Source: Huberarchaeum crystalense [NCBI: Candidatus Huberarchaeum crystalense] (GTDB lineage Archaea > Huberarchaeota > Huberarchaeia > Huberarchaeales). Taken from it: DNA of 7,424 nucleotides. Under the pieces are notes generated by a model. The model was not told the DNA's origin. It searched no databases and was given only the letters and a program-made list of their open reading frames with translations. How positions within the stretch are numbered: position 1 is the first letter of the stretch; each line of letters starts with the position of its first letter. The stretch is taken from the NCBI GenBank assembly GCA_002790315.1, contig PFUW01000040.1, positions 18,877 through 26,300 on the forward strand, read 5' to 3'. The position numbers and the translations under genes are program-made. Positions 399 to 7,325 of this stretch are shown piece after piece.

Positions 399-419
399 AA
401 AAGATATAAAATATCTTTT
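399..419. terminator. Perfect 9-bp hairpin with a 3-nt loop between convergent genes
   Basis: The arms AAAAGATAT (399-407) and ATATCTTTT (411-419) are exactly complementary around the loop AAA. The left arm begins in an A-rich run and the right arm ends in T4, so either strand would give a hairpin flanked by A/T. The convergent setting suggests a transcription end or a protein site. Archaeal intrinsic termination depends mainly on U-runs, so the terminator role is an inference. Its right arm overlaps the first copy of the repeat array. Confidence 0.4.
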
Positions 420-560
420 GTTTGTCTTGAATTAAAGCAACAGCCAACAAATATAACTAAAATTTTTGTTTGTTGTTTGAATTAGAACAATATTTAGCAA
501 ATCTAACTAAAAATTTTGTTTGTCTTGAATTAAAGCAACGGCCAACAAATATAACTAAAT
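416..560. repeat. Three tandem ~47-bp repeats, each an imperfect hairpin
   Basis: Copies lie at 416-462, 464-512 and 514-560, with starts 48 and 50 bp apart. Copies 1 and 3 differ at two positions, including CAACAGCC versus CAACGGCC. Copy 2 is more diverged but keeps the TTTTGTTTGT beginning, the TGAATTA centre and the CTAACTAA end. Each copy can fold: in copy 1, TTTGTT (417-422) pairs with AACAAA (446-451) and TTG (427-429) with CAA (438-440). In copy 2, TTTGT (465-469) pairs with GCAAA (497-501, one G-T) and TTGTT (473-477) with AACAA (486-490). There is no spacer, so it is not a CRISPR array. Confidence 0.75.
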
Positions 561-2429: not shown

Positions 2430-3902
2430 TTATTTTGGTGCCCTGTTTGTATACACTTCGCTAATGAGATGAGCAAACAACGGCCGCGTTATAAACACAC
2501 CAACAAGAATTCCTATGATAGTTGTAATTGCAAAGCCCTTCAAAAAGCTGACTCCTGTTGTGAATAGCAACAACGAAGCAATAGTTGTAAATGCAGAACC
2601 ATAAATAACAAAAAATGCGCGCTCAATTCGCACATGTATAGTTTTTCCTGTCTGTTCGCCAGACCTTACTTCACTCAAGATGACAATAAGATTATCAACA
2701 CCTGATCCAACAATTGCAATCAAAGCTATAATAGAAGCAATATCTAAGTTCCAATGAATAAGAGCTGCAATCCCCAAAATAATTATTAATTCAGAAACCA
2801 ATGCACCTATGACTAGCAAAGTGTCAATAATTTTTTTGAACCGAATAAAAATAAGAACTGCAATACCTATAAAAGCACTTACCAAAGCAATCAAAAATTC
2901 ATTTAGGAAAACATTGCCCATTTTTGCAGAATAAGGCTGCATACTATATATTTTTATTTGCACAGGCAAACTTCCAGATTCAAGCAAAGCTTTCATTCTA
3001 TCTGCATCTTTTTTTCCACCAGACCCTTTAATGCTTGTAGTTATTAGTTCATCAGCACTGCTTCGCTTTAACTCGTTTGCAATAAGCAACTCGCTAACAT
3101 TTTCTTTGTCAAGAAGCAAAACAATTTTTTTATTCAAATAACCCTTATATTCTGTACTATAATCCAATGTCTTTAAAATCCGCGCATAATTTTCAGCAGC
3201 ACCAGGTGTTATGGTTAAAGGCAATTGATAACCCCCTTTCTGCGCCACTGTTGGATAGCCAACTTTAGATATTTGATCCCCTGTGAATACTGTTTTGTTG
3301 TCTATTTTTGCTTCAAATTGGCCTTGACGCAAAAGCATTTGTTCTAAGTCCTCGCGCGTTGTGCCCGCCATTGATATTTGTAGAAAATAATTATTTTCCT
3401 CTTTTAATTTAACAATCTGCATATCAGTAAGGCCAACACTATTAATTCTGCGGTTTAAGACCCCATACACACGATCTATCATTTCAGATGCATTTGAAAC
3501 AGTTTCAGGACTTTCAAAACCGATAATAACTGTTGTTCCCCCAACAATATCCAAACCATACTTTAAACCACGGCTAGGGGTTATAGATACATTAAATCCC
3601 AAACTATTATTCTCCATTGCAAGTATTATTTTTTTTTGTCCGTCAATTACACAAATTACACTGTCCCCTTGCTTTATTTGATTCATAGCAAAGTAATAGT
3701 CATCTATTGTTTTTATTGGCTGAGAAAAAATTGCCTCAAATGTTTGCCCAGCATACTGGCCGTTTGTAATAATAACCTTTTGACCACTGCCAAAAACCCC
3801 TAGAGGGTTAATTAAATAAATACTAGCAAGCAAAAGAATAAAAACAAAAATTGCGCGCCATTCTTTTCTAATTAAATTTTCTAAAGAGAGCTTAGCAGGC
3901 AT
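2430..3902 (-). CDS. secD: Protein translocase subunit SecD
   Basis: SecD pairs with SecF in the membrane and assists Sec-dependent export from the outer face. In the 490 residues, TM1 is at about 16-36. A loop at 41-97 looks PDZ-like (IKTIDDYYFAMNQIKQGD). The SecD signature YGLDIVGGT is at 115-123, followed by an external P1-type domain (about 125-330) containing LLESGSLPVQIKI (306-318). Five more helices follow (about 334-354, 359-382, 388-411, 429-451 and 457-479), with GSGVDNLIVILSE (399-411) at the site of the conserved TM4 motif. The start at 3902 is preceded by a G-rich GGGGTGA (3906-3912), a possible Shine-Dalgarno. The first 33 bp of the start region are duplicated 43 bp upstream, and a 40-codon ORF from the end of secF overlaps the first codons of secD. 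Confidence 0.92.
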   Translation of the reverse strand: MPAKLSLENLIRKEWRAIFVFILLLASIYLINPLGVFGSGQKVIITNGQYAGQTFEAIFSQPIKTIDDYYFAMNQIKQGDSVICVIDGQKKIILAMENNSLGFNVSITPSRGLKYGLDIVGGTTVIIGFESPETVSNASEMIDRVYGVLNRRINSVGLTDMQIVKLKEENNYFLQISMAGTTREDLEQMLLRQGQFEAKIDNKTVFTGDQISKVGYPTVAQKGGYQLPLTITPGAAENYARILKTLDYSTEYKGYLNKKIVLLLDKENVSELLIANELKRSSADELITTSIKGSGGKKDADRMKALLESGSLPVQIKIYSMQPYSAKMGNVFLNEFLIALVSAFIGIAVLIFIRFKKIIDTLLVIGALVSELIIILGIAALIHWNLDIASIIALIAIVGSGVDNLIVILSEVRSGEQTGKTIHVRIERAFFVIYGSAFTTIASLLLFTTGVSFLKGFAITTIIGILVGVFITRPLFAHLISEVYTNRAPK

Positions 3903-3949
3903 TTTTCACCCCAACAAAATTTTCTAAAGAGAGCTTAGCAGGCATTTTT
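3874..3949. repeat. 33-bp direct repeat of the secD start region
   Basis: Copies at 3874-3906 and 3917-3949 are identical over 33 bp and separated by 10 bp. Each contains, on the minus strand, AAAAATGCCTGCTAAGC and the codons for MPAKLSLEN. The downstream copy (3874-3906) is the true secD start. The upstream copy falls in the secF-secD gap and has its own G-rich stretch (GGGGAT, 3951-3956) ahead of its ATG at 3945. Exact identity suggests a recent event. Confidence 0.9.
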
Positions 3950-4014
3950 AATCCCCATAAAAAAGTGTCGCGGTTATGCAATATTATTTTCTCTCTTTTT
4001 ATTTTTATATTCAT
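3892..4014 (-). CDS. 40-codon ORF linking secF to secD, made by duplication of the secD start
   Basis: An ATG at 4014 overlaps the secF stop as ATGA and opens a 40-residue frame. Residues 1-23 (MNIKIKREKIILHNRD...) have no match I recognise. Residues 24-32 (MPAKLSLEN) repeat the secD N-terminus exactly, then the frame runs into FVGVKNAC and stops at TAA 3892-3894, 8 bp inside secD. The stop arises because the duplicated segment is offset by 43 bp, not a multiple of three. It may be a translated leader that hands ribosomes from secF to secD, or the scar of a frameshifting duplication that cut an older, longer secD N-terminus. Expression is unproven. Confidence 0.35.
   Translation of the reverse strand: MNIKIKREKIILHNRDTFLWGLKMPAKLSLENFVGVKNAC
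3906..3912 (-). promoter_or_regulatory. Candidate Shine-Dalgarno of secD
   Basis: On the minus strand GGGGTGA stands three bases before the secD ATG. It resembles GAGGTGA, the complement of the archaeal 16S rRNA 3' end. It is notable because the other starts in the window lack such a motif. The spacing is short, so its use is uncertain. Confidence 0.4.
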
Positions 4015-4898
4015 ACGCTTGCCTCCTTTTTTTCTAAATACCATCTTAATATTCCTGTATTTATAATCCAAGTGTTTATAATATCAAAAGCAATCGCTAT
4101 ATTCATAATCAGTGCAATTGTGCGCGCAATATCATTTGTAGAAACAAGCTGAATTGCCAAAAAAGCGCACCAAGACGTTATCTGCATCGTAAGTCCTATT
4201 TTGGCTGCTGATTTTATTGAAGCAAATATTGTGCCTTCTCGCATTTTCATAAGTTTTGTAGTCAAAAGAACATCAGTATTAATTGAGTATCCAAACACAA
4301 ACATAAAAGCAATGATTGTAGATGTGTTAATTTCAACACCCAAAAATGAAGCAATAATAAAGGTCTCAATAACGTCAATAAGCACACAAGAAACAGCCAT
4401 AACAGAAGGCACAACACTTCGAAAATAAAAAAATACTGCTCCCCCCATCAACAAAAAAGAAAATAGCAAAATTCTTGTTGTTTTTTCATACAAAATTTTG
4501 CCTAAATATGAATCTATTTCCTTTGCATGCGGTTTTTCTTTCAAATTAAGCGCGCTCATAACTTTCTCTTCAAATTGCTGTTTTGTCAAAGAATTGCTAC
4601 CTGATTTTAGAGTAATATCTAAAATGCGCGTTCCTGTAAAAGATGTTGTTTCTTTAACATTTACGCCACTTAAATCGCCAAGTGCTGCATAAATCTCTGT
4701 CTCGCTGCCCCCTTGCCATTCAACAAGCGAAATTTTATATCCTCCAACAAAATCAAGGCCCAAATTCAAATTAACATTTCCTGTGCTTAATCCTATGAAA
4801 AATGCTATAACCAAAATAACAAACAACACTATTGGAAGTACAAGCATTTTTCGATAGTTTTTGTCGAAAAATAAATCAAGTGTTTTTGCGATTGCCAT
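4011..4898 (-). CDS. secF: Protein translocase subunit SecF
   Basis: SecF is the partner of SecD in the Sec translocon accessory complex. The 295-residue protein has the full archaeal six-helix layout: TM1 at about 18-37, the signature LGLDFVGGY at 46-54, an external P4-type domain to about 138, then helices at about 141-160, 164-186, 192-211, 232-252 and 258-282. The FGYSINTDVLLTTKL segment (202-216) is the conserved TM4-region motif (GYSLNDTVV in bacterial SecF). It is the first gene of the minus-strand cluster and its stop overlaps, as ATGA, the ATG of the 40-codon ORF before secD. The ATG at 4898 has no Shine-Dalgarno and is preceded by a perfect 42-bp tandem duplication. Confidence 0.92.
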   Translation of the reverse strand: MAIAKTLDLFFDKNYRKMLVLPIVLFVILVIAFFIGLSTGNVNLNLGLDFVGGYKISLVEWQGGSETEIYAALGDLSGVNVKETTSFTGTRILDITLKSGSNSLTKQQFEEKVMSALNLKEKPHAKEIDSYLGKILYEKTTRILLFSFLLMGGAVFFYFRSVVPSVMAVSCVLIDVIETFIIASFLGVEINTSTIIAFMFVFGYSINTDVLLTTKLMKMREGTIFASIKSAAKIGLTMQITSWCAFLAIQLVSTNDIARTIALIMNIAIAFDIINTWIINTGILRWYLEKKEASV

Positions 4899-4902
4899 AA
4901 AC

Positions 4903-4986
4903 TTATTTTGTAAGTTTGTAGGTTGTTGTTATTGAATAACAATATTATTTTGTAAGTTTGTAGGTTGTTGTTATTGAATAACAATA
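4903..4986. repeat. Perfect 42-bp tandem duplication upstream of secF
   Basis: The units 4903-4944 and 4945-4986 are identical and abut directly. Each contains the arms TTGTTATT and AATAACAA around a single central base (4926-4942 and 4968-4984), so each unit has an 8-bp inverted repeat able to form a hairpin or bind a dimeric protein. The array ends 4 bp before the secF ATG and sits between that start and a TATA-like element, so much of it may be transcribed as a 5' leader. Confidence 0.9.
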
Positions 4987-5001
4987 TAAAAAAATATAAA
5001 A
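4984..5001 (-). promoter_or_regulatory. Candidate TATA box of the secF-secD-SGNH-gatD cluster
   Basis: On the minus strand TTTTATAT (4994-5001) is followed by TTTATAT (4984-4990). An archaeal start site some 25 bp downstream would fall near 4970, giving a leader of about 70 nt that includes most of the 42-bp duplication. In such AT-rich sequence TATA-like matches are common, so support is moderate at best. Confidence 0.35.
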
Positions 5002-6664: not shown

Positions 6665-6859
6665 TTATTTTTTACTTTTAATCTTTTCTTCAGCACTATT
6701 AACAGATTTTAGAATACTTTCTTTTTTGCTTTTTAAAATTTCAGCAACAGTGTCTTTAGCTCCAAGTCCTATTGCTAAGCCCAAGCCCAAAGCAAACGCC
6801 ACTGCAAAAGCCATTAAAATAATTTTAAAAGTGTCGGTAATAAGCGAAGGATCAATCAT
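6665..6859 (-). CDS. C-terminal part of a split small TM-helix membrane protein
   Basis: From the ATG at 6859 this frame gives 64 residues: MIDPSLITDTF, one glycine-rich helix (about 11-33, AFALGLGLAIGLG), then AKDTVAEILK and a lysine-rich cytosolic tail. In archaeal 'conserved TM helix' proteins related to small mechanosensitive channels, a segment like this directly continues the fourth helix, so it reads as the end of the protein encoded just upstream in another frame. Its ATG overlaps the upstream stop (ATGATTGA). A TTG at 6892 could extend it by 11 residues, but those read the preceding helix out of frame. It could be translated by reinitiation, or the pair could be one frameshifted gene. 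Confidence 0.6.
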   Translation of the reverse strand: MIDPSLITDTFKIILMAFAVAFALGLGLAIGLGAKDTVAEILKSKKESILKSVNSAEEKIKSKK

Positions 6860-7325
6860 AAAACAGTATAATATATTTAACAATATTTGCAACTAAGCCA
6901 GCAAACAAAAATGGCGCGCGGCGCGTATAATATGCCACATATTCTCCAACAAACAAGCCAACTATAATTAAAATTACTCCATAAATAAAAATAGGGAATA
7001 AATTTGCAATATTAGTTATAAAATGACTAAGCATATCTAATTTTGCAAAACTAACTGCTTGTAACACTACTATTAAAAGCAAATATACATATAAAATATT
7101 TACAAAAAACTTAATGGGTGAATAGTCACCAAGAGTATTTCCAACAGGGGAGTCTGCGATTTTCTTTTCAATGTTTGCTTTCTTTAAAATAGATTTAATT
7201 ACTTTGCGTATAATTTTTGCAACTATAACTCCAACAACCAAAACAAGTATTGCTATTAGGATAGGATAAAGGTGGTTGACAATTGTTTCAACTGCCACAA
7301 GATTAGATAAATCTGTTATTTTCAT
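6852..7325 (-). CDS. N-terminal part of a TM-helix (small mechanosensitive-channel-like) membrane protein
   Basis: The 157 residues contain hydrophobic helices at about 17-40 (ILIAILVLVVGVIVAKII), 71-93, 108-129 (FIYGVILIIVGLFVGEYV) and 141-156. The first helix is followed by the basic segment RKVIKSILKKANIEKK. This layout, with GLFVGEYV and a following NIVKYIIL helix, fits the archaeal 'conserved TM helix' family often annotated near MscS-type channels; function is usually unproven. The frame stops in the middle of the last helix (NIVKYIILFYD, then TGA 6852-6854), and the expected continuation appears in the +1 frame starting at 6859. Compared with my recollection of relatives, about ten residues of that helix and its loop are missing at the junction, which suggests a small deletion. 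The gene lies convergent to aspS. Confidence 0.7.
   Translation of the reverse strand: MKITDLSNLVAVETIVNHLYPILIAILVLVVGVIVAKIIRKVIKSILKKANIEKKIADSPVGNTLGDYSPIKFFVNILYVYLLLIVVLQAVSFAKLDMLSHFITNIANLFPIFIYGVILIIVGLFVGEYVAYYTRRAPFLFAGLVANIVKYIILFYD

What the first reader, a model, noticed from the sequence alone, without database searches (positions are those of the whole stretch)
3874..4014. Duplicated secD start creates a 40-codon ORF that bridges secF and secD
A 33-bp exact copy of the secD start lies 43 bp upstream. An ATG overlapping the secF stop (ATGA) reads in frame through the upstream copy (MPAKLSLEN) and terminates 8 bp inside secD. This forms a continuous stop-start relay secF -> 40-codon ORF -> secD, and could set the SecF:SecD ratio. 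Alternatively it records a frameshifting duplication that removed an older coupled start and left secD to begin at the second MPAKLSLEN.
Basis: partly seen in the sequence, partly recalled or inferred. Interest (0 to 1): 0.6.

Follow-up and report, generated by a model that had tools for sequence, protein, structure and literature searches.

The report
Tandem duplication displaced secD's start codon
In a tiny symbiotic archaeon, a 43-base stutter copied the start of a protein-export gene and probably pushed its old start codon out of frame, leaving a 40-codon mini-gene that still joins it to its partner gene; this looks like one of about 80 such stutters in that genome rather than a purpose-built switch.

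Summary
On the minus strand a 43-nt tandem duplication (3874-3916, 3917-3959; 33 nt identical) copies the secD start, and the ATGA at the secF stop opens a 40-codon ORF ending 11 nt into secD. The window is Candidatus Huberarchaeum crystalense (DPANN); a second assembly carries the same junction. In 16 of 29 distant relatives an in-frame secD ATG lies in an ATGA on the secF stop, so ATG 4014 most likely marks the ancestral start. If the upstream copy is the original unit, collapsing the repeat restores one 513-codon frame, and duplicating it perfectly creates the 40-codon relay at once. The event is not isolated: the fetched genome has 79 tandem arrays of at least 90% identity in 454 kb (17.4 per 100 kb), against 6 in 930 kb of relatives. 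Inside genes 16 of 16 have periods divisible by three. Of 7 start-spanning arrays inspected (of 10), 6 leave upstream mini-ORFs; one more of these (Trm5/TYW2) also displaced an ATGA start, without a relay. Best reading: a frameshifting tandem duplication whose relay is an automatic by-product that probably keeps secD coupled to secF. A selected ratio-setting role is unsupported. The wider lead is a cellular chromosome peppered with Borg-like tandem repeats.

The parts
4011..4898 (-). secF (295 aa), upstream gene; its TGA stop lies inside ATGA at 4014-4011
   Evidence: NCBIfam SecF models, best E 8e-43, below their curated cut-offs; Pfam SecD_SecF_C 1.6e-20
4022..4026 (-). GGAGG, 7 nt before ATG 4014; complementary to the 16S 3' end (CACCTCC)
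   Evidence: Sequence; 16S tail ...GATCACCTCCTTA; GGAGG before 7 of 336 starts against 0 of 336 at a control offset
3892..4014 (-). 40-codon relay ORF (MNIKIKREK...KNAC); starts at the ATGA on the secF stop, ends 11 nt inside secD
   Evidence: no Pfam or NCBIfam match at E 0.001
3917..3959 (-). Upstream copy (A) of the 43-nt tandem unit, including ATG 3945 and MPAKLSLEN in the ORF frame
3874..3916 (-). Downstream copy (B) of the unit, including the present secD ATG 3902; its first 10 nt (mRNA sense) carry all 4 mismatches
3906..3910 (-). GGTGA, 3 nt before secD ATG 3902 (possible weak ribosome site); includes TGA 3908-3906 that closes the secD frame upstream
   Evidence: Sequence; GGTGA occurs before only 1 of 336 starts
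2430..3902 (-). secD (490 aa)
   Evidence: NCBIfam archaeal SecD subfamily E 2.9e-85, below its curated cut-off; Pfam SecD_SecF_C 2.7e-16
4903..4987 (.). Second tandem duplication in the same operon: exact 42-nt repeat ending 4 nt before the secF start
416..559 (.). Third array: three copies of a 50-nt unit, intergenic

Best explanation
A 43-nt (3n+1) tandem duplication copied the start region of secD in an archaeon whose chromosome carries dozens of such duplications. The ancestral secD start was most likely the ATGA on the secF stop, as in most of the relatives examined. The duplication threw that start out of frame, so secD is now made from the ATG in the second copy. The frame from the old start ends, automatically, at a TAA inside the copied secD start, so a ribosome finishing secF can restart at ATGA, read 40 codons and restart again on secD. 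The relay therefore probably keeps secD translationally coupled to secF across a gap (108 nt) that would otherwise be too long. Shown: the duplication, the two overlaps, the genome-wide class, the relatives' ATGA. Inferred: the ancestral state, the translation of the ORF, the coupling.
For: Second assembly identical over the junction. In 16 of 29 relatives examined an in-frame secD ATG lies in ATGA on the secF stop; one more has TTGA and one TAATG. Collapsing to copy A gives one 513-codon frame from ATGA; a perfect duplication of copy A yields a 40-codon relay at once. Genome: 79 arrays of at least 90% identity in 454,049 bases, against 6 in 930,099 bases from 42 control genomes, one of them with no readable base; 16 of 16 arrays inside ORFs have periods divisible by three, 25 of 63 elsewhere. 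Of the 10 start-spanning arrays, 7 were inspected and 6 (secD included) leave upstream mini-ORFs. A second array (L105, 63-nt unit, Trm5/TYW2 gene) likewise leaves the first copy of the start as an ATGA on the upstream gene's stop, 126 nt before the called start. In PMC10666635 (abstract and part 1 of the Discussion read) reinitiation is almost lost by about 20-38 nt, and -4, -1 and -8 nt overlaps are the usual geometry.
Against: If copy B is the original unit, the ATGA frame was never fused to secD: it would have been a 21-codon ORF ending just before secD. The 23-residue extension would be unusual: 37 residues before the first membrane segment, against 1-13 in 17 relatives. Codon usage of the extension is inconclusive: 44% of open intergenic ATG frames score as well. 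An 11-nt overlap is not among the most common coupling overlaps. At the Trm5/TYW2 array the displaced ATGA leads to an 8-codon ORF and no relay, so coupling can be lost in this genome. No sister species was available. No expression data.
Confidence: 0.64

Rival explanations
1. secD is initiated independently at its own site (GGGGTGA before ATG 3902); the 40-codon ORF is untranslated debris and there is no relay. (Compatible with the duplication part of the best explanation; odds are not exclusive.)
For: GGTGA pairs with the 16S tail TCACC. All four differences between the copies fall in the 10 nt before secD's ATG, as if that site had been tuned. At the Trm5/TYW2 array a displaced ATGA leaves no relay, so that gene must start on its own.
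Against: GGTGA precedes only 1 of 336 starts in this genome, this one, while the ORF start has the better GGAGG at 7 nt spacing. The spacing to secD's ATG is only 3 nt.
Confidence: 0.22
2. The secD start was already at MPAKL before the duplication; the stretch between secF and secD was a short upstream ORF (21 codons if copy B is the original) or an open stretch by chance.
For: SecD from 3902 has a near-typical N-terminus (14 residues before the membrane segment; 1-13 in 17 relatives). 228 of 818 intergenic ATGs are open for 23 codons by chance. Copy B as ancestor gives a 21-codon ORF.
Against: The ATGA with GGAGG sits exactly where 16 of 29 relatives have a secD ATG. Copy A, not B, continues the left flank in an open frame.
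Confidence: 0.2
3. A selected regulatory leader: the 40-codon ORF was kept to lower or tune SecD relative to SecF.
For: Ribosome flow would depend on reinitiation at a suboptimal 11-nt overlap, so a lower SecD output is plausible (inference).
Against: The relay arises from a perfect duplication without selection. RNA fold z = -0.09. No Rfam match at gathering thresholds. Similar mini-ORFs lie before unrelated genes.
Confidence: 0.08
4. Programmed frameshifting joins the ORF to SecD and makes an N-terminally extended SecD.
For: The two frames overlap in a short AAAAAUGCCUGC stretch.
Against: The shared stretch is only from TGA 3908 to TAA 3892. The required shift is +1 (or -2) and I see no recognised slippery context (judged by eye). 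SecD from 3902 already has a near-typical N-terminus.
Confidence: 0.03
5. Assembly artefact.
For: Metagenome assemblies from short reads can mis-handle repeats; no reads were available, and it is not known whether the two assemblies come from independent samples.
Against: The two assemblies agree base for base here yet differ elsewhere by a 29-bp indel. The copies differ at 4 sites. Period divisibility by three inside genes (16 of 16) points to real DNA under selection.
Confidence: 0.03

Closest known systems
Termination-reinitiation coupling at short gene overlaps in archaea and bacteria (PMC6728339: search listing and one 'find' only; PMC10666635: abstract and part 1 of the Discussion)
   Same: ATGA 4-nt overlap of two subunit genes; stop codon lying on a start codon
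   Different: Here a 40-codon ORF sits between the two genes and the second overlap is 11 nt; translation not measured
Tandem repeats of Borg elements (PMC9879509: abstract and passages)
   Same: Scattered genome-wide; intergenic and genic; periods inside ORFs divisible by three; high-identity arrays rare in the other genomes compared
   Different: A cellular DPANN chromosome, not an extrachromosomal element; mostly two copies (50 of 79) and often imperfect (28 of 79 perfect); some copy gene starts. Borg A-bias not tested here, since units were not oriented by strand
Leader peptides / upstream ORFs that control a downstream gene (recalled, no call)
   Same: Short ORF overlapping the downstream start
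   Different: No sign of structure; conservation could not be tested for want of a sister

Membership tests
Termination-reinitiation coupled gene pair | Upstream stop overlaps or lies within a few nt of the downstream start | tested here: met
   secF/ORF 4-nt overlap (ATGA), ORF/secD 11-nt overlap
Termination-reinitiation coupled gene pair | Downstream translation depends on upstream translation | not testable with these tools
   Needs a reporter assay
Termination-reinitiation coupled gene pair | Overlap arrangement conserved in relatives | tested here: inconclusive
   Direct secF-secD ATGA in 16 of 29 relatives; the intervening ORF is known only from this species and no sister is held
Borg-like tandem repeat landscape | Dense, genome-wide tandem arrays, nearly absent in related genomes | tested here: met
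   At >=90% identity: 79 in 454 kb against 6 in 930 kb of control stretches. Without the identity filter one AT-rich relative comes close: G027 31 in 147,502 bases (21.0 per 100 kb) against 145 (31.9 per 100 kb)
Borg-like tandem repeat landscape | Periods inside ORFs divisible by three | tested here: met
   16 of 16 at >=90% identity; 30 of 36 without the identity filter
Borg-like tandem repeat landscape | At least 3 perfect units | tested here: not met
   50 of 79 arrays have about two copies, 28 of 79 are perfect; the secD array has 1.9 copies
Borg element | Extrachromosomal linear element | tested here: not met
   The contigs encode 16S rRNA, SecDF, SecY, ribosomal proteins, PCNA and an ABCE1/RLI-type protein

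The most novel reading that the evidence does not exclude
In Huberarchaeum, pervasive short tandem duplications repeatedly copy gene starts and so generate upstream mini-ORFs de novo (secD, an ABCE1/RLI-type gene, Trm5/TYW2, PCNA, a GTPase, one unknown), twice on an ATGA-coupled start. Some of them, such as the secF-secD relay, have become working translation relays or attenuators: a mutational route to new upstream ORFs and small proteins in a cellular chromosome.
Probability: 0.28. Interest if true: 0.66.

Novelty: new variant of a known kind. Interest (0 to 1): 0.43.

Why it matters
It shows how a frameshifting duplication at a coupled gene junction can be tolerated: the displaced start becomes a relay. 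It also points to a chromosome with a far higher density of high-identity tandem arrays than the relatives sampled (about 27 times all controls, about 12 times the five AT-rich ones), which resembles what has been described for Borgs, and offers natural cases for asking how upstream ORFs are born.

Tried and rejected
A sister-species comparison was the first aim. The phylum search held only one genome, a 27-nt junction pattern found nothing in viral contigs, and the genome-contig scan found one locus. The best-scoring other SecD is 38% identical over query residues 112-484.

RNA structure: the fold of 3860-4030 is no better than shuffles (z -0.09); Rfam gave no match at gathering thresholds. 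A regulatory RNA was dropped.

Coding test of the extension: codon score 1.0; 76% of 225 gene N-termini and 44% of 436 open intergenic frames score at least as high. Inconclusive.

Microhomology as the cause of the duplications: in the 22 perfect arrays of fewer than 3 copies the excess over two units ranges from -2 to 45 nt (11 of 22 at 4 nt or less), against a chance mean of 0.9. No mechanism claimed.

Split genes bridged by short overlaps as a genome-wide habit: of 14 overlapping co-directional pairs with overlaps of 5-26 nt, 5 were scanned. None had both partners matching one family. One upstream protein matched nothing, and both partners of the L074 pair match only part of their families. 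GatD is the only gene I saw split across a short overlap. The 8-nt overlap before SecY looks secure; those before S11 and the 11-nt one before L6 do not, since the family match begins about 70 and 14 residues into the called ORF.

Literature: the one paper with both 'huberarchae' and 'tandem repeat' uses the words in unrelated passages. 'tandem repeats', DPANN and intergenic together gave none. This covers only the open-licence library searched.

Limits of the census. Gene calls are my own greedy ORF calls (at least 270 nt), so the start/stop/inside classes are approximate. Control sequence is stretches (1 to 11 contigs per genome), not whole genomes; one control genome (G002) gave only N. Only 5 control genomes are under 36% GC (213,085 bases, 3 arrays). 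Without the identity filter G027 (GC 25.5%) has 21.0 arrays per 100 kb against 31.9 here, so the excess is in high-identity arrays. The Markov control was run once. Relatives include some near-identical pairs (for example L005/L006, L017/L018, L020/L021), and their starts are in-frame candidates, not mapped starts.

Full report
Identity. The window matches Candidatus Huberarchaeum crystalense (record PFSX01000009.1, L001) with no mismatch over its whole length and one 29-bp gap. This is a DPANN archaeon from Crystal Geyser with an estimated genome of about 0.5 Mb and an inferred symbiotic lifestyle (PMC6792436, passages only). The window is from a different assembly: it lacks 29 bp at 6859 that L001 has. 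Whether the two assemblies come from independent samples is not known.

Observation. On the minus strand, secF (4898-4011) ends in TGA inside ATGA. The ATG at 4014 has GGAGG 7 nt upstream and opens 40 codons ending with TAA at 3894-3892. secD starts at 3902. The copies are 3917-3959 (A, upstream in the mRNA) and 3874-3916 (B): 33 identical nt plus 10 nt with 4 mismatches. All four mismatches lie in the 10 nt before secD's ATG; by my arithmetic that has probability 0.0017 if they fell at random in the 43 nt (a cluster noticed after the fact). The secD frame is closed by TGA at 3908-3906, so in-frame SecD can start only at 3902 or later.

What relatives show. No sister is held: the phylum set has one genome. 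Of 60 more distant relatives, 45 had a SecD match; loci were given for 29 of these, and in all 29 a SecF-like frame lies just upstream of secD. In 16 of the 29 an in-frame secD ATG lies in an ATGA on the secF stop; one has TTGA, one TAATG; in the other 11 the nearest in-frame candidates overlap by more or follow a gap, some being TTG. These are candidate starts read from sequence, and a few of the relatives are near-identical pairs. So the ATGA in the window sits where most of these relatives can start secD. The stretch before the first membrane segment is 1-13 residues in 17 relatives, 14 from the present start, and 37 from ATGA in the collapsed sequence. Thus the present SecD is near-typical, and the 23-residue extension, if it was ever part of SecD, was unusual.

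Frame logic. With one 43-nt unit removed and copy A kept, ATGA reads 513 codons into SecD. With copy B kept it stops after 21 codons, just before secD. A perfect duplication of copy A gives a 40-codon ORF with the same stop. The relay thus needs no selection: the secD start sequence ATGCCTGCTAAG contains a TAA in the shifted frame. Which copy is original is not settled.

The genome. I fetched G001, the genome holding L001, in stretches (74 contigs, 499,820 bases, 454,049 readable). Tandem Repeats Finder gives 145 arrays of period 20-200, 79 of them at 90% or more (17.4 per 100 kb). One Markov-1 version gave 8 arrays, none at that identity. In 42 control genomes (930,099 readable bases, one genome all N) there were 54 arrays, 6 at 90% or more (0.65 per 100 kb); among 5 controls under 36% GC, 3 in 213,085 bases. 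Against this, without the identity filter the AT-rich control G027 has 31 arrays in 147,502 bases (21.0 per 100 kb against 31.9), so the excess lies in the high-identity arrays. By position, of the 79: 40 intergenic, 16 inside ORFs, 13 over a stop, 10 over a start. Inside ORFs 16 of 16 periods are divisible by three; elsewhere 25 of 63. That pattern is evidence that the arrays are real DNA under selection. 28 of 79 are perfect.

Copied starts. Of the 10 start-spanning arrays I inspected 7; L035:9007, L055:5357 and L060:3255 were left out. Six leave an upstream mini-ORF: secD (40 codons); L076, an ABCE1/RLI-type protein (14 codons, an exact copy of its N-terminus, ending 39 nt before the start); L041, no Pfam match (20 codons, ending 2 nt before the start); L105, Trm5/TYW2 (8 codons, twice); L035:12867, PCNA (11 codons, imperfect copy); L046, a GTPase (12 codons, twice, copying an internal ATG of a TTG-called ORF). 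In the seventh, L071 (UvrD-like), the copied start codon reads ATA.

A second displaced ATGA. When I checked which mini-ORFs sit on an upstream gene's stop, two did: secD and L105. At L105 the first of three copies of the Trm5/TYW2 start is the ATG of an ATGA closing a 252-codon frame with a weak HD-domain match (E 0.0009, below the Pfam cut-off), and the called start lies 126 nt downstream. There the mini-ORF is 8 codons long and stops 99 nt before the gene, so no relay exists. This supports displacement of coupled starts as a recurrent event in this genome, and it also shows that loss of coupling can be tolerated.

Mechanism. In published reporter work with native gene pairs from Haloferax volcanii and E. 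coli, reinitiation falls steeply with distance; about 20 nt almost abolishes it according to the abstract, and +38 nt (almost) completely according to the Discussion for E. coli pairs (PMC10666635, abstract and part 1 of the Discussion). Without the ORF the secF-secD gap is 108 nt. With it, the junctions are -4 and -11 nt. Overlaps of -4 (12), -8 (4), -1 (4) and -11 (1) occur among the 214 co-directional pairs I called in this genome; the -8 overlap before secY looks secure, those before S11 and L6 depend on uncertain starts. So a relay is plausible, but secD may be translated less well than with a direct ATGA. No expression evidence exists here.

Not supported. A selected ratio-setter: the fold is ordinary (z -0.09), no RNA family was found, and codon usage of the extension is inconclusive. 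Frameshifting and assembly artefact are unlikely for the reasons listed under rivals.

Verdict. A real, frameshifting tandem duplication at an anciently coupled junction, most likely tolerated because its by-product keeps the coupling. Each ingredient is known; the combination, and the Borg-like density of arrays in a cellular chromosome, is what is worth following. I found no description of the latter in the open-licence library searched (listings; passages).

Noticed in passing
window 1837-1580 and 1587-619 (minus strand): GatD is split in two ORFs (GatD_N domain; asparaginase part) with an 8-nt ATGAGTAA overlap. A search of 61 genomes matched GatD in 60: of the 59 besides G001, the best match is an uninterrupted frame in 58 and has one internal stop in one. 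Another frame break bridged by a stop/start overlap.
   Followed up: partly
window 6852-7325 and 6665-6892 (minus strand): A mechanosensitive-channel-like gene is broken in the window (157 codons) by a 29-bp deletion at 6859 that L001 does not have (229 codons there); the deletion is flanked by A-runs.
   Followed up: yes
window 4903-4987: Exact 42-bp tandem duplication directly upstream of the secF start, so both secF and secD have duplicated 5' regions.
   Followed up: no
L105:6458-6633: A 63-nt unit in nearly three copies at the Trm5/TYW2 start; the first copy's ATG overlaps the upstream gene's stop as ATGA, 126 nt before the called start, with no relay.
   Followed up: partly
L076:18884-19056: An 84-bp duplication copies the start of an ABCE1/RLI-type gene exactly, leaving the mini-ORF MRIAILHIDHCFPE upstream.
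   Followed up: partly
L041:522-650: A 65-bp duplication leaves a 20-codon mini-ORF that ends 2 nt before the start of a gene without a Pfam match: a possible second relay, though not on an upstream gene's stop.
   Followed up: partly
L074:9123-10326: Two ORFs overlapping by 8 nt match only the C-terminal part of an LD-carboxypeptidase model and the N-terminal part of an RmlD model: possibly broken genes.
   Followed up: no
G001 (L032-L110), whole assembly: 79 tandem arrays of at least 90% identity in 454 kb, far above the stretches of relatives examined; cause unknown.
   Followed up: partly
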